DNA of 27,319 nucleotides from a virus, in IMG/VR virus record IMGVR_UViG_3300006920_000189, positions 1-27,319 of that record, one strand, 5' to 3'. Positions 1,037 through 22,957 of the stretch are shown here, piece by piece. Each line of letters begins with the position of its first letter. Position 1 is the stretch's first letter. The position numbers and the translations under genes are program-made. The notes below the pieces were generated by a model. That model was given only the letters and a program-made list of their open reading frames with translations, searched no databases and had not been told where the DNA came from.

Positions 1037-1059
1037 CCTAGCCAGTTCCACAGGCTAGG
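1037..1059. repeat. 7-bp inverted repeat at the end of the recombinase gene
   Basis: Perfect arms CCTAGCC and GGCTAGG are separated by 9 bases and include the recombinase stop codon. No T-run follows on either strand, so it is a poor intrinsic terminator. Large serine recombinases often have attP right beside their gene and recognise imperfect dyads, so this could be part of attP. That is inference only. Confidence 0.4.
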
Positions 1060-2770
1060 CTGCAGGTAGTAAATGTTGTATAGTTTGGTAGACCCGATTA
1101 AAGGCTGCAAAATCTTCTGCGGTTCGATTGTAGTCCGGTTGCGGGTACACAACGCTATTTTGCCCCTGATACGGCAGTAGCGGCGCCTCTGGCGCTTCTG
1201 GTACGTTTTGCTGGCCTAATCCGCCAGCGTTCTGTAAAGGGCTGATACCTAACGGTGTTGGCCCTTTTTCTATCTGTACGTATTGCATAATACCCGAATC
1301 AGTTAGGCTAAAAATACTATTGATTCTGGTGGTTCTACAGGCTAGTATTTCATCGTTAGGCTTTTCAGTAGTAACATAGAACCCTGCAGGGAAAAGCATG
1401 GTTAGCAGCGCTCTACGCTGATTACCGTCTAACTGGTCGTAAAGGGTACCCAGGCTTAGAAACAGGTTTAGAACTTTAGGTATCAGCTGGTATTGGTTGT
1501 CTCGCAGAAACTGCTGCCGGGCTATTGTTGCCCTTACCTTTTCGCTTTCCTCCCTGAATACCTCGTAATCTTCCGCCGTTATCTTTTCATCAGCAAATAG
1601 CTTTAGCGCTTTCATTCTGCGCTGCTCCAGGCCGTCCAGTGATGTTTTAAGCTGTCCTATCCTGCCGCTAACATCCTTTACCAGCTGGCCTACCTTTTCC
1701 GCCGCCTGCGCCTGCAGGTACTCCTTTGCCGCTGTACTCATTTCCAGGCTGGAAAAGATAGTAGCAATAAAGCCGTGAACGCGCCCTACCCTGTTTCGTC
1801 CGTGCTTCTGGTTCTTACTGCAGCGGTAGTAGTGATAAACATCGTTTCTACCTTTGCTGGTTTCGTGGGTAGTGGCGCTACCGCAGGCGCAGCGGAAAGA
1901 CTTGCTAGCGAAGTAGGCGCTATCGCCAGAAGCGTTTACTGTCCCTTTCTTACCGTTTAGCTGCTGCGCCTGCGCCTGCTGCCAGGTGTGAAGGTCTACT
2001 ATAGCTTCTACGTTTAGCTTTACGCGAAGATCAGGCAGGCCTGGTATCTTCGAAGTATAGAACTTCATACCAGCGTAGATTTCGCTTTTGATGGCCTTAT
2101 AATAGGTACTAAGTCCGCCGAAAATAGGCCGGCCGCCCAGCTGGTTATATACAGACGTTGGCTCTAGTCCCGCCGCTATCATAGTATAGGCCTCCCTGTA
2201 GTATGGCGCCAGATCCGGATCCTGGGTAAATATCCGCTTACCTCTACTGTCTAGTTCCTTTAGGAAAACGTACCCCCTGGGCGCCTGTCCCTGGTACCAG
2301 CCTGCTTTCCAGGTGTAGTAGACGCCCTTTAGTGATCTACGCCGGCCCTCGGTGCTTTCTTCCTCTGCCATCGCTTCGCGCAGTGACCGCAAAACCACCT
2401 GCCCAGATTTTTCTTTATCTGTCCATTCGGTAGCCGCCTGCACATCTACGCCTACCTGCCGAAACAGGTAGCGATAGTAGCCGCTTAATTCGGTATCCCT
2501 AAACCACCTGGAAAGGGAATGTACTACCAGGATAGTTACCCAGTCTGATTTAGGCCGGCGCCGGCTGTTGTGGCGCTTGCAAAACTCTAGCGCCTCTTTA
2601 ACAGACGCCCTATCGTCACCGCCTCTAACCACTTCAGAAAACTCCCGTATAACCTCATAGCCTTTACCCTCCATAACCATACGGTTAACGTCGTGCTGGG
2701 CGCCTATAGAAGTGTTGTCTGCCTGGTCAATATCGCTAACCCTGGCTACGCTAATCGCTTTATTTTTCAT
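1055..2770 (-). CDS. large serine recombinase (phage integrase)
   Basis: A 571-residue site-specific recombinase. The N-terminal resolvase domain has the nucleophile Ser12 in ARVSDIDQADNTSIGAQ and the active-site arginine region SLSRWFRD (residues 85-92); the Asp usual just before it is Ser85. The helix with EEESTEGRRRSLKG follows near 140-150. A 'Recombinase' domain is marked by QGQAPRGYV. The zinc ribbon (FRCACGS, later YYRCSKNQKHG) is unusual: the first knuckle is C-x-C, and a His seems to take the place of the last Cys. A coiled coil and a Pro/Gln-rich tail end the protein. This length and order match integrases of the phiC31/TP901 class, which integrate at attP/attB and need a directionality factor for excision. 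The start overlaps the upstream 41-codon gene by 11 bases. It sits inside the early operon, not at a prophage end. Confidence 0.95.
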   Translation of the reverse strand: MKNKAISVARVSDIDQADNTSIGAQHDVNRMVMEGKGYEVIREFSEVVRGGDDRASVKEALEFCKRHNSRRRPKSDWVTILVVHSLSRWFRDTELSGYYRYLFRQVGVDVQAATEWTDKEKSGQVVLRSLREAMAEEESTEGRRRSLKGVYYTWKAGWYQGQAPRGYVFLKELDSRGKRIFTQDPDLAPYYREAYTMIAAGLEPTSVYNQLGGRPIFGGLSTYYKAIKSEIYAGMKFYTSKIPGLPDLRVKLNVEAIVDLHTWQQAQAQQLNGKKGTVNASGDSAYFASKSFRCACGSATTHETSKGRNDVYHYYRCSKNQKHGRNRVGRVHGFIATIFSSLEMSTAAKEYLQAQAAEKVGQLVKDVSGRIGQLKTSLDGLEQRRMKALKLFADEKITAEDYEVFREESEKVRATIARQQFLRDNQYQLIPKVLNLFLSLGTLYDQLDGNQRRALLTMLFPAGFYVTTEKPNDEILACRTTRINSIFSLTDSGIMQYVQIEKGPTPLGISPLQNAGGLGQQNVPEAPEAPLLPYQGQNSVVYPQPDYNRTAEDFAAFNRVYQTIQHLLPAA

Positions 2771-5191: not shown

Positions 5192-5625
5192 TGCTTGATT
5201 ATTTTAACAGCTTCTATCTGGTGTACTTGTCCGTCACTTGTCCGCACAAAATCAGCGCCAGGCTTTAGCCGAAGGCTGGCGATATTTTCAGCTTTTGGGC
5301 AGCAGTTTCTACCAATCTTTTGCAGATCCTTTAGGGTAATTCCAAGCGCCTTTCTATTTTCTGGCGTGTTCAATACCCCTTTAACTATCCTACCGGCATA
5401 TAGGCAAGATTCAAAAAGCCCCAGGACTACAGCAAAATCTACATTGGCTACAGGATCGTCTTTATATCCTGGTGTTTCGCAAGGTTCTTTATATTCGCCT
5501 ACGTCGCCCTGAAACCACCTATACCCTGCGCTGTCGTGGCCCCAAAAAGTTAAAAACGCATCGTTTTTATTAGTCCATTTCCTAGACAAATAGGCAAAAG
5601 TTCCGCCTGTTTTCATCGTTTTCAT
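5188..5625 (-). CDS. hypothetical protein, 145 aa
   Basis: Not recognised. It contains aromatic-rich strands (FLTFWGHDSAGYRWFQGD), an acidic stretch and helical segments with Cys residues (GRNCCPKAENIAS). The C-terminus FVRTSDGQVHQIEAVKIIKQ looks like a small beta domain. The start is the ATG at 5625, overlapping the DnaC-like gene stop as ATGA; a second ATG lies 9 bases on. It carries one copy of a 22-bp exact repeat (5290-5311), also found in the Cro-like gene but in another frame. It sits between the helicase loader and the phosphatase. Confidence 0.65.
   Translation of the reverse strand: MKTMKTGGTFAYLSRKWTNKNDAFLTFWGHDSAGYRWFQGDVGEYKEPCETPGYKDDPVANVDFAVVLGLFESCLYAGRIVKGVLNTPENRKALGITLKDLQKIGRNCCPKAENIASLRLKPGADFVRTSDGQVHQIEAVKIIKQ
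5290..5311. repeat. 22-bp direct repeat, copy A
   Basis: The 22 bases here, containing GCTTTTGGGCAGCAGTTTCT, are identical to 8590-8611 in the same orientation. This copy lies in the 145-aa gene. The reading frames of the two copies differ, so protein similarity does not explain the match. Confidence 0.85.
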
Positions 5626-6629
5626 GTCGTAGCTTTTTTAGTAGTTAGTGATGGCTGGGCAGATCCGGATCCGCCGATAGCTTTGTAATCTCTGAATGTT
5701 TCGCCGCCTATAGGTATTATTTCGTACTGCTGCAGCAGCCTGTCCTGTACCCTACCGTCACCTATCAGGCCTGGTAGGTCTTTAGGCTTTATGTTGCTGG
5801 TAATGATAGTCTGGGCGCCGGTCTGCTTCCAAATGTGATGGCGTACCGTTAGGATAGTGGCTATTACGCTTAGATCGTTTCCGAAATGCTTATACTGTAA
5901 ATGCTCCCTTTTCAGGTCATCTAAAACCATACTGCCCTTGCTGGCGTCCTCAATCGGTTTTACCGTCTGGCTAGCTGCTACTGCCAGCATCATTTCGTCC
6001 AGGGACGTAAAGCCCAGAATGAAGCCGGTGTTGTACTCGCTATTAAGCTGCCGGCTAACATAATTAGCTACTATAGCTAGGGTACTTTTACCTGTCCCTA
6101 CCCCGCCGTACAGGTACAGGCTGCTACGGATAGGGATGAGCCTAACCTGGTTTTTTTCGCAGTTACATAGCCCATCTGGGCGGGTGCTTTGCTGCCCTAC
6201 TAACCAGTGCGCAATTTTGTGCATTGCTTCTACTAAATGCCGACGCCCTTCCCATACTGGCGCTTTTCCGGTTTCAAATTCTACCTGCTCGCAGTAGCCA
6301 CGGTAAAGCATAACTTTTGCCGCTTTGGTTAAAATCGCTGGATCAGCATCAGATCCTGCTGCACGTTTATTCATCGTCCTATACATTCTGCCCAGGCAGT
6401 TTTTCAGGCGCTTATCTTCGTCTACATCTTCTGCAGGCGCTGGCGCCATCAGCTTTTCGTGAAACGCCAGCCTATTGGCCTGCTGCTCTGGCGTCAGCTT
6501 CGCCAGATCGATAGCCTTTAGTCTTTGGCGCTGATCTTCTGTACCATACCTAACTATAGCGCTACGCTTCGCCGGCCCTACTGGTTTCGTCCAGTCTACT
6601 ACTATGTTATTTTCCATCGAAACCGGCAT
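5622..6629 (-). CDS. DnaC-like AAA+ helicase loader
   Basis: A 335-residue ATPase. The N-terminal third is helical and charged and would contact the helicase or initiator. The AAA+ core has Walker A GGVGTGKST (175-183), Walker B SMVLDDL with Asp237/Asp238, a sensor-1-like TIITSNIKPKDL, and an arginine-finger-like GDGRVQDRLL. Proteins of this kind load the replicative helicase at the origin during theta replication. It overlaps the end of the initiator gene by 23 bases. If the second ATG (6617) is used, the overlap is 11 bases. The initiator-loader pair is the classical lambda O/P-like arrangement. Assignment is strong; the start is uncertain by four codons. Confidence 0.9.
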   Translation of the reverse strand: MPVSMENNIVVDWTKPVGPAKRSAIVRYGTEDQRQRLKAIDLAKLTPEQQANRLAFHEKLMAPAPAEDVDEDKRLKNCLGRMYRTMNKRAAGSDADPAILTKAAKVMLYRGYCEQVEFETGKAPVWEGRRHLVEAMHKIAHWLVGQQSTRPDGLCNCEKNQVRLIPIRSSLYLYGGVGTGKSTLAIVANYVSRQLNSEYNTGFILGFTSLDEMMLAVAASQTVKPIEDASKGSMVLDDLKREHLQYKHFGNDLSVIATILTVRHHIWKQTGAQTIITSNIKPKDLPGLIGDGRVQDRLLQQYEIIPIGGETFRDYKAIGGSGSAQPSLTTKKATT

Positions 6630-7842
6630 TTTCGGAGTAATCGTAATTGGTTAAATCGTCCGCCGCTGGCGCCGCCTGGCCTGGCTTTTTTCCCGTTTTG
6701 TTTTTGCGGTCTTCTCTGCGCTCGTTTAACCCTCTTTCGGTTTCCAGTTCAAAGCGCATAAAATTAAATAGGCGCGGTAGCAGATCCGAACGCCAGTTCT
6801 GCAGCTGGTGCTGCTTACTTTTAGACGCCAGCGGAAAACAAACCAGGGCAGGCGCCAGTAGTTCGCCCTCTAAAGCGCCTACCGACCATCTGGCTTCTGT
6901 CCAGTAGTCTATACCTGTTTCCACTTTGGTAAAGTAGTAGGCCATCATGCTAGCGACCTGCTGCACCGTCACCTTTGCGCCCAGGCCTATCTGCTCCAGG
7001 TAGACCCGTTCCAGGTCGAAGGTGGCGCCCAGGGTAGCGGCTGCAGCTTTCTGGATTATATAGCCCTCTGCCTGCTCCCCTGGCTCGTCTATCCATTTTT
7101 CGCCTGCAGGAATTCCGCCGGCCGGAAATTCTTTTTTTGATCGTAAAGCATCTAGCGCAGCAATCGCTGCAGCTGCGCCTTCCCTATCCATTTCATCGAA
7201 TTCTAATAAATCAGATTCGGTTATTGTTTTTTCTGGCGAAGCAGAAGCAGAGGGTTTAGAAGTCTGTGTAGAAGTCTCTGTAGTATTCTTTGTAATGTCA
7301 CTACTCCCAGGTAAGTACCGTCCCGACTCTGGCGTAGGTACCGTACTTACTTCCACGTTAGTACCGTACTTACCCCCAGGTAAGTACGCCCCATCGTTTA
7401 GCGCCTGAATGTTTGCAGGCACTGGGCGCAGGTATAGGGTATTAGGCTGTACCATGTTGCCCTGGCGAAAAGGCTTCGTAAAGCTGTGTACTAGATCCAT
7501 TCTTTCTAGTATATCCAGCGCCAGGCGTATCATTCGCTCGGTAAATCCAAACTGCGCTTCTATCTGGGGATAGGACCGCCGCAGAAAGTCACCAGAAAAC
7601 CGGCGCTTATAGCTTACTACCCTACCTGTATCTTCGTCCCTGGCTATTGCTGGACGATACCAGTAAACAACATCCGCCAGTATCATTACCGCAGCAGGGT
7701 TTACCCTGCCGTTTTTGTTCAGTATCTGGCGTAACCAGATCGGAGGCACAATGTTTCCATGAAATACTATTAGGGCCATTTCTTCTACCTCTCTGGTAAG
7801 GGCAGACCTGTCTGGCCCTGTAATTTTGTGCTTATCTTTCAT
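6607..7842 (-). CDS. replication initiator (lambda O / DnaD-like)
   Basis: A two-domain initiator. The N-terminal part (VYWYRP, then FSGDFLRRSYPQIEAQFGFTERMIRLALDILERMDLVHSF) fits the winged-helix domain used by phage initiators to bind iterons. A low-complexity linker rich in Ser, Thr and Pro follows (TTETSTQTSKPSASASPEKT). The C-terminal helical domain (LERVYLEQIGLGAKVTVQQVASMMAYYF) resembles DnaD/O-type helicase-loader binding regions. It ends in a charged tail. It is followed directly by the DnaC-like gene. The ATG at 7842 is chosen; a GTG at 7911 would add 23 residues, and the ATG at 7779 is also possible. The DNA for the junction between the winged helix and the linker contains an iteron array, as in lambda O. 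Confidence 0.85.
   Translation of the reverse strand: MKDKHKITGPDRSALTREVEEMALIVFHGNIVPPIWLRQILNKNGRVNPAAVMILADVVYWYRPAIARDEDTGRVVSYKRRFSGDFLRRSYPQIEAQFGFTERMIRLALDILERMDLVHSFTKPFRQGNMVQPNTLYLRPVPANIQALNDGAYLPGGKYGTNVEVSTVPTPESGRYLPGSSDITKNTTETSTQTSKPSASASPEKTITESDLLEFDEMDREGAAAAIAALDALRSKKEFPAGGIPAGEKWIDEPGEQAEGYIIQKAAAATLGATFDLERVYLEQIGLGAKVTVQQVASMMAYYFTKVETGIDYWTEARWSVGALEGELLAPALVCFPLASKSKQHQLQNWRSDLLPRLFNFMRFELETERGLNERREDRKNKTGKKPGQAAPAADDLTNYDYSENAGFDGK
7306..7388. repeat. putative replication origin: iterons inside the initiator gene
   Basis: Four copies of the core GTAAGTAC (or its complement GTACTTAC) lie in 77 bases: 7311-7318 (+), 7343-7350 (-), 7366-7373 (-) and 7380-7387 (+). 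The outer copies share the 13-mer CCCAGGTAAGTAC; the inner two share the 13-mer GTACCGTACTTAC. Copies 3 and 4 form a perfect 10-bp inverted repeat around CCCA (7365-7388). AT-richer DNA lies beside the array at about 7190-7300. Iterons within the gene of the initiator that binds them are the known design of lambda-type origins. That this is the origin here is inference. Confidence 0.7.
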
Positions 7843-7946
7843 CCTAAAAAGATTTACCGTAGTTTTACGGCTGTTAAATGATAGAAAGCTGGGGCGGGTA
7901 AACTGTGCCACGGTAAAGCCGCTCCGCTTTCGATTTTAATCCTATC

Positions 7947-13404: not shown

Positions 13405-16400
13405 TATAATTTGCGGACTATTAAAGATGTGCCTGCATTAATATTTGCAGAACCGGAAACGCCCCTGCCCTGCGAATTAATGGTAGTTGTATTAGATACT
13501 GTAAAATATCCAGTAAACACCTTTCTGGTGTTGCTGGTCTGCTCTGGTAGTGTTAACGAAGTACCACTACTTAAAGTAGCCAGTACGCCATCATCGCCGG
13601 CTGTATATCCCCCCGTAAGCGTTCCAGCGCCTACGTTCATCCTTATTCCAGCGTCCGTTCCAGAAGACGTATTATAGTATACAATTAGTTCAAATTCATA
13701 TCTTATACCAGCCTTTACAGGTACTCCACCAGGGCCGCCTGTCGTCCAGTTCCCCGTAGGGAATGTACCTACGGATGTATTCGCAGTTTGGGAATATTGC
13801 AAGGGCATACCTTTATGAAATTCGGTTAAACCATCAGCATTAGTAACCAAAACACTACCGTCTGTAGTTGGCTTTTCATCAGTAGCAAACTGGTAATAAT
13901 CGTTTGCCCCTGTATCAAAAAATAGCCTGGGCTTTGAACCGTAAAAGTCAAGCATGAAATACCTACCGCTTGAATTATGGGTAAGCCCTTTTGGTACCAG
14001 TCTGGTATATTCGAAATTACTTCCGTATGCCTGGAAGTGTGGCACATCTTGCAGGACACCAGAAGAATTGAATTTTGCCTCAAACTCTAGCCCTACACCA
14101 TTCGCCCCCTGGGTGTACCACCCGTTCACATAGTTACCTGAAGACAAATTTCCCCATTGCTGCCGGGTATCGAACGATCCTGAACCTGAATAAGAATAAC
14201 CACGTACATCAGTGCTTAAAGGTACGGCAACATCGCCACCATCCTCGATGCCGTTACCATCCAACGGCAGGTTAGTAAGCAAACTTCCGTCTCCCCTAAA
14301 AGATGTGGCGTTCAGTGTCCCCGTAACGTCCAGCGGATAAAGCGGGTTTGTGTTAGCAATGCCAACTAAACCACCGTCTCTTTTTATTGATATGGCAGAA
14401 GTTACTGTTGTACTATTGGCCATTTCAATACGCAACAAATTAGCCGTGCCATCATAATACATTCGCCCGCCGTAGTTGCTACTTTGACCAAAGTAACCGG
14501 TGCTTTCCATCATTTCGATACCTCCTGAATATTGATAATTAAGCTGGTCAGCATTGAACCTTAAAAAGTTCGCGGTGGTACTCGCTGTTCCTAAAAGGTT
14601 CAACCGTGTAGCTGGATTAGTAAGCCCTATTCCCACCTCGCCCGACGATCGGTAAACGTCTGCACCGTTTTCAGACCATACCGGGCCTAACGGACTAATG
14701 GCTGTGGCAATAGCTGCGTCTATCTGATCCTTCCGTAAAACGTGGCCCGTGCTTGTTCCTGCCTCAACCGCTATTTGCCCATTGGTTGATATATCACCCG
14801 TTACGGTAAGGACTGTTGTGCTTTCCGGGTCAATGTGGAACACTTCATCGTGATTGTCGTCATACCATTGCGCATCATTCCACGACTGTATATTATTCCC
14901 TTTTCGGTATAGCGGCCCGGTATAATTCCTTGAAGGCACCCACTGTATCATCCCTATTCTGGTCGGGTTGGCTGGGTTCCCTGCGTTCTCTCTCGCCTTG
15001 AATTTAATTTCGTATTCCTCGGTATAAGTCGAACCGAAACCAGCCGCCGAAGGAACAACAAATTTATAGACATTGAGGCCTGTAGACGTTTCCATATTTT
15101 CCCCTACAACAACCAGCGGCGTTAAATAGGACGCATGTTCGCTGGTAACGGTCAATATCATATTCCCATCATATACATCATACGATCCATACATGGTGAC
15201 GTAGACAGTTCCTGACCCGTATGTGATCCGATCTATAAAGCCCTTCGCGTCAATATCAATTGTGATTTTGACAGAATCCCCGCTCCCCCATCCGGCCGAA
15301 GCATCCGCATTCGTATCAAACATTGATTTTAATGAGCCATACGACGGCGCGGTTGTACTTGTGACGCTGCCCCAATCCCAAGCCGACGCAAAACCATCGG
15401 AATTGTCAACGTCAATAATTCTTTTTGTTGTGCGCGGATTGTAGGCCCAAAAAGGCTGTCCGATTGCGACAAATTCAGGACTTAAATCAATAGTATTAGA
15501 ACCATCAATGCCAATTGTGTAATTACTTGTATTATAATTCAGGGTAGGAAAAGCCTGAACAATATCCCCGTCTGACTCATATCCAACGAATCCAACAGGG
15601 GTACCAACAGGAATGTTCTCGATGAAGAACTTTGAGTTTTTCCAACCGAAACGATCGGTTAGTGTTATCGGGCTTCCAATAGCGACGGACGTACCGCCGC
15701 CAAATGTTGAGAAAGCCCAATCGTCTGAACCCATAGTCATCGCATTTCGTTCCCACGCCACGTTGTTGGCAGAACTAATCAAACCATTATTTACAGTCAA
15801 CGAAGGCTCTACACCATACCCCCAAAAGGCCTTACCCGAAGATTTCAGGCTTCCACGAGTAACCAAAAAATTCGACCCACTATAAAACAGCCTTTCAGAT
15901 ACCATACCCGAAATGCTATTACCTACGGTTGGTTGGTATAGCATTGTGCCAACAAAGCGGCTGTCGCCAAATACATCAAGCTTCGCAGTTGGAACCGTTA
16001 ACCCTATCCCAACGTCTCCCGTAGTCCGGTATATGTCCGATCCTGAAAGTGTCCAATAATTAGTAGCGTCATCGCCTGCCACCCCTTGCGGCCCGGCTGG
16101 CCCTACTTCCCCCTGTGGTCCCGTCCCCGGTGCTGGTATCGCTATATTCAGCAAGTCCCCGTCCCCGTCTGTTGCTACCGTTACGTCTGCACCTTCAACG
16201 TTAATCCTGTTGATTTCTCCTAGCCATACCGTACCGGTGTCCCCTTTCATTTGAACCCCTTGTTTTACGGCTTGTGTTCTATCTCTGTTATATATTGGTA
16301 GATTAAAAGTCACACTTTCACCAGTTGTATAATTGAAAGTTCCCTGTAATTGTAATTGGTCAGCGAAAGATGTTTGCTGGCAAAGAGAATCAGCAAAATA

Positions 16401-17847: not shown

Positions 17848-20555
17848 TAGTTCTTTTTAATTAGTTGAATAGAAACCGCTAAGCCTTTAGGTGCTGCGCC
17901 TGTAACTGTTTCTACCTGTAGCCTGTAGTAGCCTATGGCTACATCTGCGAAAGCGTCTACGCTTTCGCCCAGGCCAGTGTTATTAAATGTCGCTACGGTG
18001 TACCTGTACCCTGTAGCGTCGTAGTATTTCAGGTTCGCCTTTACTGTTCCGCCGTTATCCTGGGCGAAGGAAAAGCTTACCTTTCGAATACCCCAGCCAA
18101 CCCTATTTACTGGCCGCCAGAAAGGTTCTGTAAAGCCAGTAGCTACCGTGTCGTTGTACCCGAAAATTTGCAGGTCGTAGTGATCTGTCCGCAGCAGCGC
18201 CTGTAGCCGTGCGGTAAATTGTGGATCTGGCTGTATGTATGACCCTGCAGGAAAGTCTGCGGTAGCGTTTACTGGTACTACTGAAACCTCGCCGGTATCA
18301 GGTACTAGCCAGACCAGGCCGCCAGCGCCGTAATACGGTACAGCGTCTGCTGGTGGGCTAACCTGATTAACAGCAGGTACGCCCAGACCAGAATCGTATA
18401 AAACTTCTATCTGCTGCGTTTCTCCAGTCAGCGGATTAGTAACTACAATAATGTCGCCACCGTAAAGAGGTACGTCGTCTAGGTTGTTTACGGATAAGCC
18501 GCCTATACCGTCGCCAGTAGCTATACCGTCGTCTGTGGTGGTAGGTACGGTGTTGATACCCGGAGCGCTGTTACCTGGCGACCCGCCAATAGGTGGGGTA
18601 GTGTTCCCGCCGCCTGGCGTTACTTCTGGCTCTGGCACTCCCTGCCCGTCATCAGCCCCGAATATCGGACTACCGACCGTAGGCAGCCCTGGTACCGTAG
18701 TATCTACAAAGTTTTCTGCGATTTCAAACCACCTACCGCGCCAGGTGTCGCGGTCCAGGTTTAGCTGGCCTGATTTTAGCAGATATAACCTGGTATCGTC
18801 TCCTATTAAAAAGTGCGGACTGTAGTTTGTGGAAACTATAGTAATATCTAGCTGCTCCCTGGGCGCCTCTTGCAGTGCTAATATCATTCTGGCTAAAAGT
18901 CCGCCATGCGGCATAGCTGTAGCGTTTAAATAGCCGCCCCCCGACCATCTGCGCCAGCCATCGGCTACTAGCCAGTCCGTACCGTTAGCAGTGTATTCTA
19001 TCCGCCCAAACGTATTTTCACTAGGGCCATCTCCAAAAACTACTTCACGTTCCAGCACCAGGCTATTAAATCCCCCTGCGCCAGTTTCAGGCTCAAAGGT
19101 TAGATAGTTGTACTGATCAGAAATAGACCCTGTTAGTATGCTTTCCAGAAACACGTTATCTACCTGGTATAGTAGGTCAGTACCTGCTAACGAAAAGCCA
19201 TTACCGTTAACTATATCTACGTCGAAAAAGGTCATTTTCAGAGCGCCAGAAATAGGTAAGGGTGGCGATAAAGCAGAAATAGATGTTTCCAGAAATTGTA
19301 GCGCCTGGGGTGGGGAAAAACCAAAAACAAATTCATACTGCTCTACCCCGTCTACCCAGGTAGTTTCTCCGTAGCTGATTCCGCCAGGCGTAACGGTGGC
19401 CTGGCGTTTTAGGTACTTTTCGCCGCCATCTGGCCCAACTGAAATACGCACCGCAAAAATTGCATAAAGCGCCGTACTAGGTACTGCTGCGCTGTCGCTA
19501 AAAGCCCTAAAGGAAATGTTACCAGAAAGTCGCAGCCGGCCGGCGCCGCCATCTGTACCCAGGCTGCCTAAAATTGCTACAGGGCTTACTGTTTCATCCC
19601 AGGTGAAGCCTGGTAACAGGTTCTGCCTGCTGTAATTTTTGTAGACCAGCTTAACGGCCTTTAGCGGCGCAAGGTGGGTTTTTTTGCCGCCTGCGTTGGC
19701 GTATGCTTCGCCATTAACCAGGTGGCTACCCATCTGTACAGTAGACCCCGACCAGCTAGCTATAGCGTCGTATGCCAGTGCGTTACCGCCCTGGTCGTAG
19801 CGAAAAAAGGTAGTAGCCGTTAGTGGGCTGGCATAGCTACTAATATCTACGATTACGTACCTACCCGCAGAAAACACCAGGCGGCCGTTCATCCTGGTTA
19901 AAAATTCTACCAGCGCAGCGTAGCAGCTAGAGCGTTTTACCTCCCCCGTTTTATCCACCGTCTGCAGGGCGTTAAAGCCCAGGCGGGTACTGTCTAGCAG
20001 GTTAACGGACGTCGATGGCGTTAAACCCTCTGGAAACATTGTACTATTTGCCCGCAGATACTCTGCGCCAGGTGCAAAATAGTCTGATAGTGGCACGTTT
20101 CCCAGTACGTTAAATAGGTGTTCCTTTACCGTTACAAAGTCGTTTAGTCCTCCCTGCTTATAGGGTATGTCTTTTAGCCTAGAAAGGCCATCGGTAGCGC
20201 CTACTTTAAAGAAATAAGGGTACCCGTCAAAATCAGATACAACCTGTTCCAATAAAACAAATCCTACCCAGAATAGGGCGCCGTCTTTATGTATGCGCAG
20301 CCTGTACTGCATTTCGTTAGCCTGTACCAGCCCGGCAAAAACTGCTGCCTGGGTATCGCTGGTTATTTCAAACTGTACAGAACACTTAGACGCCATTACC
20401 CTACCATCAGGATCCTGGCCGCTTAACTGGAAATTAATACTGGCGCCCTTGCTTTCCAGCAGCAGCCCCGCATCAGTAGGGGCGCCGTTGTCTAAAAATG
20501 CCTCGTAGGGCGTGTTATTTACGCTGTTAATTCGCGCCTTTATTACCGTAGCCAT
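17847..20555 (-). CDS. tail tip / hub-like protein, 902 aa
   Basis: The large gene after the tape measure, where siphoviruses carry distal-tail and hub proteins. The N-terminal 150 residues (LLLESKGASINFQLSGQD, later MQYRLRIHKDGALFWVGFV, then FFKVGATDGLSRLKDIPY) match a type of tail protein common in Bacteroidota phages. The middle is beta-rich. A Pro/Gly-rich linker near 640-680 (EPEVTPGGGNTTPPIGGSPG) separates a C-terminal domain of about 200 residues. No separate Dit and Tal genes are seen, so this gene may combine both. One-base overlaps (TAATG) join it to both neighbours. Confidence 0.75.
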   Translation of the reverse strand: MATVIKARINSVNNTPYEAFLDNGAPTDAGLLLESKGASINFQLSGQDPDGRVMASKCSVQFEITSDTQAAVFAGLVQANEMQYRLRIHKDGALFWVGFVLLEQVVSDFDGYPYFFKVGATDGLSRLKDIPYKQGGLNDFVTVKEHLFNVLGNVPLSDYFAPGAEYLRANSTMFPEGLTPSTSVNLLDSTRLGFNALQTVDKTGEVKRSSCYAALVEFLTRMNGRLVFSAGRYVIVDISSYASPLTATTFFRYDQGGNALAYDAIASWSGSTVQMGSHLVNGEAYANAGGKKTHLAPLKAVKLVYKNYSRQNLLPGFTWDETVSPVAILGSLGTDGGAGRLRLSGNISFRAFSDSAAVPSTALYAIFAVRISVGPDGGEKYLKRQATVTPGGISYGETTWVDGVEQYEFVFGFSPPQALQFLETSISALSPPLPISGALKMTFFDVDIVNGNGFSLAGTDLLYQVDNVFLESILTGSISDQYNYLTFEPETGAGGFNSLVLEREVVFGDGPSENTFGRIEYTANGTDWLVADGWRRWSGGGYLNATAMPHGGLLARMILALQEAPREQLDITIVSTNYSPHFLIGDDTRLYLLKSGQLNLDRDTWRGRWFEIAENFVDTTVPGLPTVGSPIFGADDGQGVPEPEVTPGGGNTTPPIGGSPGNSAPGINTVPTTTDDGIATGDGIGGLSVNNLDDVPLYGGDIIVVTNPLTGETQQIEVLYDSGLGVPAVNQVSPPADAVPYYGAGGLVWLVPDTGEVSVVPVNATADFPAGSYIQPDPQFTARLQALLRTDHYDLQIFGYNDTVATGFTEPFWRPVNRVGWGIRKVSFSFAQDNGGTVKANLKYYDATGYRYTVATFNNTGLGESVDAFADVAIGYYRLQVETVTGAAPKGLAVSIQLIKKN

Positions 20556-22957
20556 TAGTACGCTCTGTTATAGCCGTGTTCTGCCTGTCTGACCATCGCT
20601 ACCAGCCTGTCGGCCTGTAGTTCGAATTCGCCAGTAACCTGTACACTGCTGCCTGCAGTGTTCATAAATTCATGCAATCGGTTTAGGGGTATTATCGCCT
20701 CTGGACCTGCTTCGCCAGCGACAAATAAGCCTGCGCCGGTAGTAATACCACCAGCAGCCAGCAGTGGGATATTTAAGGCGCCCAGGGCAGAAGTAAACAG
20801 CGCCGCTGCGCCTGCGCCAGCTGCTGCTGCCAAAGCAACGTTAAAAGGTGGCGGTACCAGCTTTAGGGCGCCAGCCACCTGGGTAGCTACCGCTAGCTTT
20901 ATTTCTGCGGCTATTGCGTCGCGCAGCGCTGATACTACAGCGCTACCAAAAGCTTTAACAGCAGACGCGCCTTTACTCATAGCGCTAGATACCTGGGCGA
21001 AAGCAGTTTTTGAAACGTTGCCGGTTAACTCCATAGCTGCCTGCATTTTTGCTATAGACTCGTTTAGTTCCTCCTGGGTAGCTAGCTGTCCGTTTAATTC
21101 TTCTGTTAGCAGCGCTACAGCGCCTACACTTGCTGGATAGCCATCCTCTACCAGACTGGTGATTAGACTCCTGGTTAGTCCTATCCTTTCGCTTAACGAA
21201 TCGTAGGTACTACCGAAAGCTTCCTGCTTTTCAGTGATCACTTCTAAACCGCTGCGATAGTCGCCAAAAAAGTCGTCTTGTAGGGCAGGCTTTAGCCCTT
21301 CGATCTTTTCCTGCAGGTACTCCGTATTTCTGCCGGCCTGCTGTAGCGATAAAACAAAAAGGTTAACCCCGTCTACCTGGCCTGTATCTATCGCCTGTAC
21401 TGCCAGCGGACCGCCGCCGCCGCCGCTGCCGCCTGTATCGTCATCAGTACCGCCGCCGCCGCCGCCGCCGCCTGGCTTTACATCTTTCAAAAAGCTAGTT
21501 AGCGTCCCCTCTGATAAACCGCCTACCGTCTGCTTAAACGCTTTACCAAATGTCTTACCCAGGCTAATACCTGCTACAGCGATTTTAGCCAGGTTCGCCG
21601 GATTAGCCAGGCTATTTTTAAGGGTGGAAAATCCAGCCTTAAATTCGCCTGACAATATTTGCCCGATACCCTTAAAGGTGTTACTTAGCTGGGTAGCTAT
21701 AGTAGACGTTATTTTGATCACTACCGCCGCCAGTCCAGCGTAAACGCCGATAATATTTTTAGCTATTGTACCTATTACATTTAGGGCGCCGCCGAAAGGC
21801 TTTAGCGCCGCATCGATAATATTGTAAATAGCTACGCCAAAACTTACCACCGAATCCCCCAGGCGCGCCAGGCTTTCGCCCAGTTCTGCCACCAGGCCAC
21901 GAAAATAGCCAGAATTCCTATAGGCTGCAATGATACCTGCAGTCAGCAGCGCCAGGCCTACTACTACCAGCCCTACAGGGCTGGCCAGAAACGCGAATAC
22001 CCCGCCTAAGCTAGTGATGGGCGCCAGCAGCAGGCTAAAACCTGACCGTAGCAGCGGTAGCGCTTTAGCGACCGCCCCCAGCCCCAAAAACATCGGACCG
22101 ATAGCAGCTACCAGTCCAGCGCTATAAATGACTGTTTTTTGCAGGGTAGGATTAAGCGCCTTAAAAGCGTTTACGCCATCAGAAATAGCTGCGCTAAGTC
22201 TGGTTAGGTTTTCCTCCAGGTTTAGCGTTTCAGATAGCGTTTTACCTATTTCCCTACCGGCTATCTGTAATTCTATGCCGAAAGTTTCAAAAGCCTTACC
22301 CAGTCCGCCCTGGATGTTTTGGAAAGTTTTACTGGTTTCCGCAGCTTTCGTTAGTCTTTTAAGAAACTCGCCAGCGCTTACCCCTGCTTTATTAATACCC
22401 TCCGCCGTGATCGTTCCGAATTCGTCTTTTATTATTTTAGTAAGTCCTGGCAGGCGTTCACGTATTACGCGCAGTTCCGTTTCTAATATCTTCCCCTTAC
22501 CTATCGCCTGCGCTAACTGTCGGGTAGCTTCGCCTGCGTCCTCTGATCCTTCCCCCGTTAACGTCGCAGCCCGTCCAAATTGCCGTAATAGGCGCTCTGC
22601 ATTCGCTGCGCTAACCCCAACCGCCTGCAAATTTAGCGACCCCGCAGCAGCAGACTTTAGATCCAGGGTGGTCTGGGTATCCTTGACAATATTTAGCAGG
22701 CTGGAAAACTGCCTGGCGCCTTCTTCTGCGGATCCAGAAACAGCCGCCAGGCCTTTTTCCAGCTTATCGAAGTCTGCGAAGGTTTTAACCGCAGCGGCGC
22801 CTATACCGATAATGGGCAGGGATACCCTGGTAGTTAAGTCTCTGCCTATACGCTCTGCCTTATAGCCAAAACGTTTTAGCTTATTCTCTGCCTGGGTTAG
22901 CGACCTGGTTAAAGGGCTAACATCAATTCCCAGTTTTAATAGTAAGCTAGAAGCCAT
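20555..22957 (-). CDS. tape measure protein
   Basis: 800 residues. The N-terminal part (LTQAENKLKRFGYKAERIG, then GIGAAAVKTFADFDKLEKGL, then ARQFSSLLNIVKDTQTTLDL) is the conserved tape-measure domain. Long hydrophobic segments follow (about 270-350), as is usual, then a Gly-rich linker near 490-515. The C-terminal helical domain ends AGPEAIIPLNRL, a typical tape-measure end motif. The protein sets tail length and helps DNA enter the cell. By the usual rule of about 0.15 nm per residue, the tail would be near 120 nm; this is an estimate. The start overlaps the tail-chaperone frame by 11 bases. Confidence 0.93.
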   Translation of the reverse strand: MASSLLLKLGIDVSPLTRSLTQAENKLKRFGYKAERIGRDLTTRVSLPIIGIGAAAVKTFADFDKLEKGLAAVSGSAEEGARQFSSLLNIVKDTQTTLDLKSAAAGSLNLQAVGVSAANAERLLRQFGRAATLTGEGSEDAGEATRQLAQAIGKGKILETELRVIRERLPGLTKIIKDEFGTITAEGINKAGVSAGEFLKRLTKAAETSKTFQNIQGGLGKAFETFGIELQIAGREIGKTLSETLNLEENLTRLSAAISDGVNAFKALNPTLQKTVIYSAGLVAAIGPMFLGLGAVAKALPLLRSGFSLLLAPITSLGGVFAFLASPVGLVVVGLALLTAGIIAAYRNSGYFRGLVAELGESLARLGDSVVSFGVAIYNIIDAALKPFGGALNVIGTIAKNIIGVYAGLAAVVIKITSTIATQLSNTFKGIGQILSGEFKAGFSTLKNSLANPANLAKIAVAGISLGKTFGKAFKQTVGGLSEGTLTSFLKDVKPGGGGGGGGTDDDTGGSGGGGGPLAVQAIDTGQVDGVNLFVLSLQQAGRNTEYLQEKIEGLKPALQDDFFGDYRSGLEVITEKQEAFGSTYDSLSERIGLTRSLITSLVEDGYPASVGAVALLTEELNGQLATQEELNESIAKMQAAMELTGNVSKTAFAQVSSAMSKGASAVKAFGSAVVSALRDAIAAEIKLAVATQVAGALKLVPPPFNVALAAAAGAGAAALFTSALGALNIPLLAAGGITTGAGLFVAGEAGPEAIIPLNRLHEFMNTAGSSVQVTGEFELQADRLVAMVRQAEHGYNRAY
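21411..21474 (-). repeat. GGC/GGT triplet repeat coding polyglycine linkers
   Basis: Two runs of CCG/GCC triplets on the plus strand encode two Gly-rich runs separated by a Thr/Asp-rich spacer in the tape measure. Such triplet runs can vary in length by slippage. Confidence 0.7.

What the first reader, a model, noticed from the sequence alone, without database searches (positions are those of the whole stretch)
7306..7388. Lambda-like replication origin buried in the initiator gene
Four copies of GTAAGTAC/GTACTTAC lie within 77 bases as two pairs of 13-mer direct repeats, and the last two copies make a perfect 10-bp dyad. They fall at the DNA-binding-domain/linker boundary of the O-like initiator, next to AT-richer DNA and directly upstream of a DnaC-like loader gene. 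The pattern is seen in the sequence. The origin role follows the known lambda O design. The alternating orientation (+,-,-,+) differs from lambda's iterons.
Basis: partly seen in the sequence, partly recalled or inferred. Interest (0 to 1): 0.7.

Follow-up and report, generated by a model that had tools for sequence, protein, structure and literature searches.

The report
Phage replication origin inside initiator gene
This phage carries its replication start site inside the gene for the protein that recognises it, and the unwinding half of that site is a 12-base DNA repeat that also occurs in phages of many unrelated bacteria, which seems not to have been described before.

Summary
The repeats are real and far beyond chance. 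They are best read as four 17-bp palindromic iterons (GTAAGTACgGTACTTAC type) exactly 23 bp apart. The period is not a multiple of 3, so it is not a protein repeat.

Homologous initiator genes, picked by protein alone, carry 22-23 bp arrays at the same place with different sequences. The nearest relative (Neolewinella) has the same register but GTAACGACgGTCGTTAC, a change mirrored in both half-sites. This is what dimer-binding sites that evolve with their protein should look like.

It is conserved at the DNA level in phages of Bacillota, Pseudomonadota, Cyanobacteriota and Bacteroidota. Thr is ACA 86/87 and Glu GAG 82/84, although the same genes prefer GAA. A Bacillus plasmid keeps only iterons plus this element, without the gene and out of frame.

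Best explanation: a lambda-type origin made of a variable recognition array plus a conserved unwinding element. Function is inferred; nothing was tested at the bench.

The parts
6607..7911 (-). Replication initiator gene, 434 aa (GTG start as listed): winged-helix domain at residues 40-173, disordered linker about 184-243 encoded by the origin, helical C-terminal part
   Evidence: phrog_270 replication initiation protein E 1.5e-5; AlphaFold2 pLDDT above 90 for the N-terminal domain; 37% identity over 419 alignment positions to the Neolewinella protein
5622..6629 (-). DnaC-like helicase loader gene, next in the operon and overlapping the initiator stop
   Evidence: phrog_3277 E 2.3e-8, phrog_50 E 3e-7
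7380..7396 (-). Iteron 1 (gene order), outer, one strong half: CGATGGGGCGTACTTAC
7357..7373 (-). Iteron 2, inner, near-perfect palindrome GTAAGTACGGTACTAAC
7334..7350 (-). Iteron 3, inner, near-perfect palindrome GTAAGTACGGTACCTAC
7311..7327 (-). Iteron 4, outer, one strong half: GTCGGGACGGTACTTAC
7297..7304 (-). Terminal degenerate half-site GTAGTGAC; GTGATGAC at the same place in the Neolewinella relative
7259..7296 (-). Three 12-bp repeats ATTACAAAGA-ATACTACAGAGA-CTTCTACACAGA-CTTC: local version of the conserved TACTACAGAGAW element, the proposed DNA unwinding element
   Evidence: two matches with 2 mismatches at 7267-7284 and 7279-7296, chance 0.06; conservation in relatives

Best explanation
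This is the phage's lambda-type replication origin, embedded in the initiator gene. Dimers of the initiator's winged-helix domain bind four 17-bp palindromic iterons spaced 23 bp apart and wrap or bend the DNA. The strain opens the adjacent AT-richer 12-bp repeats (TACTACAGAGA type). One exposed strand is held, probably by the initiator itself, while the DnaC-like loader from the next gene brings in the replicative helicase. Shown here: the array, its periodicity, dyad symmetry and conserved position; its divergence together with the protein; the DNA-level conservation and near-exclusive location of the 12-bp repeat. Inferred: protein binding, strand opening, strand capture and helicase loading.
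For: (1) Array beyond chance: 0 of 5000 synonymous shuffles reach the periodicity; period 23 is not a multiple of 3. (2) In 79 non-redundant homologues picked by N-domain protein only, 46 have a significant array, 38 of them with period 22-23, in the stretch just after the domain. (3) The nearest relative has four units in the same register, with a change mirrored in both half-sites: GTAAGTACgGTACTTAC here, GTAACGACgGTCGTTAC there. (4) The 12-bp element follows the array. At most 3 of 23 mismatches in 34 of 79 homologues against 22 of 790 synonymous shuffles; at sites picked by amino acids, Thr ACA 86/87 and Glu GAG 82/84, while conserved control sites in the same genes are GAA 42: GAG 22 and evenly mixed Thr codons. 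The reversed pattern gave 0. (6) Plasmid pBSG3 keeps only iterons plus element, without the initiator and with two +1 shifts in the old frame. (7) The region coincides with the disordered protein linker.
Against: No binding or replication data. GC skew shows no switch in this fragment. The AT enrichment is modest. The window's 12-bp repeats are degenerate (3 of 23 mismatches). 33 of 79 homologues show no significant array with this gap-free test, and a few lack the element (e.g. Eggerthella phage LE2-3, Exiguobacterium phage). The helicase-loading module differs between relatives: DnaC-like loader, G39P-type loader, or helicase directly next.
Confidence: 0.9

Rival explanations
1. The DNA repeats are by-products of a repetitive, Thr/Glu-rich protein linker selected at the protein level.
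For: The element encodes TTENTTEITT-like residues in most homologues and always lies in one reading phase. A 12-bp unit is four codons.
Against: The iteron period of 22-23 bp cannot encode a protein repeat. Synonymous codons are nearly fixed in the element (ACA 86/87, GAG 82/84) but not at conserved control sites. pBSG3 keeps the element out of frame without the gene.
Confidence: 0.03
2. The array is an operator: the initiator, or a phage repressor, binds there to shut off transcription of the replication operon, and replication starts elsewhere.
For: Palindromic sites for a winged-helix protein are what an operator looks like. Plasmid initiators often autoregulate (general knowledge).
Against: The array lies about 500 bp inside the gene rather than at a promoter, has four phased copies and is followed by the same 12-bp element in most relatives. 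In lambda the same position is the proven origin (annotation; PMC7466680).
Confidence: 0.05
3. The 12-bp element is a recombination joint: a conserved stretch where phages swap N-terminal domain plus iterons against C-terminal domain plus loader, kept similar by exchange and not by an unwinding role.
For: It sits exactly between the recognition module and variable C-terminal parts (DnaD, O-like, others). Near-identical DNA is found across phyla.
Against: Exchange between cyanobacterial, Bacteroidota, Bacillota and enterobacterial phages frequent enough to fix single codons is hard to sustain. pBSG3 keeps the element without the gene. It abuts the iterons at the place where lambda has its AT-rich unwinding region.
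Confidence: 0.12
4. The 12-bp element is a site for a host factor (DnaA-like strand capture, or a transcription or nucleoid protein) and is not contacted by the phage initiator.
For: It is conserved while the iterons and initiators diverge, as expected for a common partner. Its other strand holds TAGTAA, two triplets of DnaA-trio type, every 12 bases (by inspection).
Against: Only two of each four triplets fit the DnaA-trio form 3'-(G/A)AT-5' quoted in PMC10797057. The hosts span several phyla.
Confidence: 0.2

Closest known systems
Phage lambda origin (ori-lambda in gene O) and the similar Stx-phage origins (P27, 933W)
   Same: Four iterons (six in the Stx phages) in the middle of the initiator gene, 20-24 bp apart, each an imperfect inverted repeat bound by an O dimer, followed by an AT-rich tract needed for unwinding; the helicase-loader gene follows (PMC7466680).
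   Different: Different iteron sequence. The initiator is only distantly O-like. A DnaC-like loader replaces lambda P. The unwinding part here belongs to the TACTACAGAGA 12-bp repeat kind, which lambda does not share (best match 9 of 23 mismatches).
Initiator-gene repeats noted in Obolenskvirus phages (Brutus, Scipio)
   Same: Direct repeats in the middle of the replication protein gene, proposed as origin (PMC10888812); the Obolenskvirus IME-AB2 (L006) shows the 23-bp array and the 12-bp element.
   Different: The passages read in that paper name neither palindromic units, nor the 23-bp phase, nor the conserved second element.
Iteron plasmids (RK2, F, R6K) with 13-mer unwinding elements
   Same: Iterons next to short AT-rich direct repeats; Rep binds the exposed strand with sequence specificity (review PMC10797057).
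   Different: Not embedded in the initiator gene in this way; unrelated repeat sequence; 12 instead of 13 bp.
Bacterial oriC unwinding system with DnaA-trios
   Same: Short triplet-based repeats next to a duplex-bound initiator array.
   Different: No DnaA; only half of the triplets fit the trio form.

Membership tests
Lambda-type gene-embedded iteron origin | Origin lies inside the coding sequence of its own initiator, at the end of the DNA-binding domain | tested here: met
   Array at gene nt 516-601, domain ends near residue 173
Lambda-type gene-embedded iteron origin | About four iterons, regularly spaced at 20-24 bp | tested here: met
   Four units, spacing 23, 23, 23; lambda 20, 24, 23
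Lambda-type gene-embedded iteron origin | Each iteron is an imperfect inverted repeat | tested here: met
   Consensus palindrome reached in 0 of 300 column shuffles; mirrored change in the nearest relative
Lambda-type gene-embedded iteron origin | AT-rich unwinding tract directly downstream in gene direction | tested here: met
   58% AT over gene nt 600-750 against 46-48% over the array; modest
Lambda-type gene-embedded iteron origin | Helicase-loader gene follows | tested here: met
   DnaC-like loader, not lambda P
Lambda-type gene-embedded iteron origin | Initiator homologous to lambda O | tested here: inconclusive
   Window protein matches phrog_270 only; 33 of 38 aligned relatives match phrog_391 'O-like'; fold matches phage Min27 O at 7e-4; Phage_rep_O only 0.044 in two of eight members
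Lambda-type gene-embedded iteron origin | Initiator binds the iterons and replication starts here | not testable with these tools
   Needs binding and origin assays
Two-part phage origin with TACTACAGAGAW 12-bp element (described here) | 22-23 bp array followed directly by 12-bp repeats in the linker-coding part, phase T|ACT|ACA|GAG | tested here: met
   Window 7259-7296, 2 mismatches per 18-base match, chance 0.06, same phase as relatives
DnaA-trio unwinding element | Run of 3'-(G/A)AT-5' triplets next to a DnaA box | tested here: not met
   By inspection only TAG and TAA of TAG-TAA-TCT-CTG fit; the adjoining sites are phage iterons; definition

The most novel reading that the evidence does not exclude
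A single 12-bp unwinding element (TACTACAGAGAW, two to four copies) has been kept at the DNA level across the replication origins of phages of several bacterial phyla, while the adjacent recognition sites and their initiators diverged freely. It would be a common strand-opening code of temperate phages, read as single strand by the initiators or by a universal host partner.
Probability: 0.6. Interest if true: 0.75.

Novelty: new variant of a known kind. Interest (0 to 1): 0.55.

Why it matters
The array alone is one more lambda-like origin. The wider pattern is more useful. It gives a sequence signature that locates phage origins without experiments: 2355 of 5426 complete E. coli genomes hold a match, and the four checked lay in prophage genes, mostly Rac-like. 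It separates recognition (fast-changing iterons) from opening (constant 12-bp repeat), so how phage initiators melt DNA becomes directly testable. It also exposes elements that exploit the site: a Bacillus plasmid carrying the origin without its gene, possibly a decoy or a helper-dependent replicon, and a cyanobacterial CRISPR spacer that matches the element.

Tried and rejected
Close relatives by direct peptide patterns from the window protein: none; solved by a profile of N-terminal domains. Exact search for the window's own iteron pair in IMG/VR: none. GC skew as an origin marker: uninformative in this fragment. Lambda as a carrier of the 12-bp element: not supported (9 of 23 mismatches). 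Felixounavirus bumzen membrane-protein hit: coincidental, no array. Pfam and NCBIfam on the window initiator: no match. PDB fold search: only weak winged-helix matches, best E 0.04. Viral origin of the pAQ4 CRISPR spacer: no exact match. Literature strings of the element: no relevant paper. The library lacks most subscription journals, so prior description cannot be excluded.

Full report
**Observation.** The four GTAAGTAC words, the two 13-mer pairs and the 10-bp dyad are present at the stated place, and the word occurs nowhere else in the window. A repeat search shows the underlying order: one family of four copies at spacings 23, 23, 23. Read on the gene strand the units are CGATGGGGC|GTACTTAC, GTAAGTAC-G-GTACTAAC, GTAAGTAC-G-GTACCTAC and GTCGGGAC-G-GTACTTAC, separated by 6 bp. 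Each is a 17-bp odd palindrome; the inner two are nearly perfect and the outer two have one good half. In lambda, too, the inner iterons are bound first (PMC7466680). Under synonymous codon shuffling, 0 of 5000 shuffles reach the 23-bp periodicity and 4 of 5000 reach four copies of any 8-mer in so short a stretch. Because 23 is not a multiple of 3, the pattern cannot be a repeat of the protein.

**The gene.** The 434-aa product matches the phage replication initiation family phrog_270 (E 1.5e-5). The next gene matches DnaC-like helicase loaders (E 2e-8). AlphaFold2 with 38 relatives gives a confident winged-helix domain at residues 40-173 and a disordered linker at 184-243. The origin-like DNA encodes about residues 172-218, that is, the junction and the linker. 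Fold searches find only weak winged-helix matches in the PDB (replication terminator protein, E 0.04; plasmid Rep-DNA complex, E 0.06). Among predicted viral structures they find phage initiators, including Bacillus phage PM1 DnaD (1e-13) and phage Min27 protein O (7e-4).

**Relatives keep the array but change its sequence.** Homologous genes from eight annotated phages were tested in the same way. Seven, those of Geobacillus, Acinetobacter, Staphylococcus, Exiguobacterium and Bacillus phages, show arrays of 22-23 bp (44 = 2 x 22 in PM1) at the same place with unrelated words; the Eggerthella phage does not. I then collected 160 further loci by N-domain protein only and reduced them to 79 non-redundant genes, the window and the annotated phages included. 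46 have a significant array, 38 of those with period 22 or 23, located just downstream of the domain. The nearest relative, in Neolewinella antarctica (Bacteroidota; 37% identity over the whole protein), has four units in the same register with consensus GTAACGACGGTCGTTAC. It differs from the window's GTAAGTACGGTACTTAC by a two-base change mirrored in both half-sites, as expected if a symmetric dimer reads it. Both arrays end in a degenerate half-site GTAGTGAC / GTGATGAC.

**A second element.** Directly after the array most of these genes turn into a 12-bp repeat, consensus over 45 genes TAC(T/A)ACAGAGA(T/A)TACTACAGAGA(T/A)T. The window's version is ATTACAAAGA-ATACTACAGAGA-CTTCTACACAGA at 7259-7296. 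It encodes a Thr/Glu-rich linker, so protein-level selection had to be excluded. At sites chosen by amino acids alone (52 genes), the second Thr of each unit is ACA in 86 of 87 cases and Glu is GAG in 82 of 84, although the same genes prefer GAA. At a conserved control Glu in the domain the count is GAA 42: GAG 22, and at a control Thr all four codons are about even. The best match to the element has at most 3 of 23 mismatches in 34 of 79 genes, against 22 of 790 synonymous shuffles.

**How far it reaches.** All 120 lie in one phase of an open reading frame, and the best upstream period was 22 or 23 in 113 of the 117 that could be scored. The reversed pattern gave none. The pattern was chosen by DNA, so these loci show exclusivity and context, not conservation; the conservation tests above use the protein-chosen set. 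In GenBank phages the matches are mostly in replication initiation genes of Staphylococcus, Acinetobacter, Klebsiella, Escherichia, Pseudomonas, Burkholderia, Xanthomonas and Synechococcus phages. 2355 of 5426 complete E. coli genomes hold a match. The four inspected lay in prophage genes, three of them next to YdaT-family genes (Rac-like); three have a clear 23-bp array and the fourth a weak one.

**The module without its gene.** The 8.4-kb Bacillus plasmid pBSG3 carries a 172-bp stretch 76% identical to the PM1 gene that spans the iterons and the 12-bp element and little else. No other part of the initiator was found, and two single-base shifts break the old frame. This is strong evidence that the block works as DNA. 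Such a plasmid could be a decoy, since ectopic lambda origins arrest lambda (PMC4488673), or a helper-dependent replicon. I have not tested either. Separately, a CRISPR array next to type I-D cas genes on the cyanobacterial plasmid pAQ4 holds the element as part of a spacer; no exact phage source was found.

**Mechanism.** The known lambda steps fit: initiator dimers on the iterons, opening of the adjacent tract, binding of the exposed strand by the initiator, loading of the helicase. The two-part conservation adds a division of labour: the iterons change with the initiator while the opening element stays. Whether the constant element is read by the initiators, by a host factor, or is kept partly by recombination is open. 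Membership in the lambda-type origin class rests on five met features and one inconclusive one (homology of the initiator to O). Binding and firing cannot be tested here.

**Novelty.** Gene-embedded iteron origins are known from lambda and were suspected for Obolenskvirus (PMC10888812). I found no paper in the open library that describes the 12-bp element. Subscription literature was not searched, so this is a statement about the library only.

Noticed in passing
L303 (pBSG3, NC_014104) 717-888; similar 8.4-kb plasmids of B. velezensis: Mobilizable plasmid carrying a PM1-like phage origin (iterons plus 12-bp element) without the initiator gene: possible natural origin decoy or phage-dependent replicon.
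   Followed up: partly
L301 (pAQ4, NC_010478) about 14398-14421: A CRISPR spacer next to type I-D cas genes of Picosynechococcus PCC 7002 contains TATATATACAGAGATTACTACAGAGAT, i.e. the phage origin element.
   Followed up: partly
L304-L307; 2355 of 5426 complete E. coli genomes: The element is common in E. coli prophages, in genes annotated only as hypothetical, mostly next to YdaT-family genes (Rac-like), which are therefore probably origin-bearing initiators.
   Followed up: partly
L300 (Trichormus variabilis plasmid A) 917-2425: A cyanobacterial plasmid gene of unknown function, before a DnaB-like helicase gene, has the 23-bp array and the 12-bp element: likely a phage-type replication initiator.
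   Followed up: no
window 1055-2770 (-): Large serine recombinase (phrog_95 integrase, E 2e-40): the phage is probably temperate.
   Followed up: no
window about 21403-21490, inside ORF 20555-22957 (-): A 39-bp periodic stretch (13 codons) with the same periodicity score as the iterons, probably a protein repeat in a large gene.
   Followed up: no
relatives L003, L007, L005, L006: The same N-domain and origin type is coupled to different helicase-loading modules: G39P-type loader, DnaC-like loader, or helicase gene directly next.
   Followed up: no
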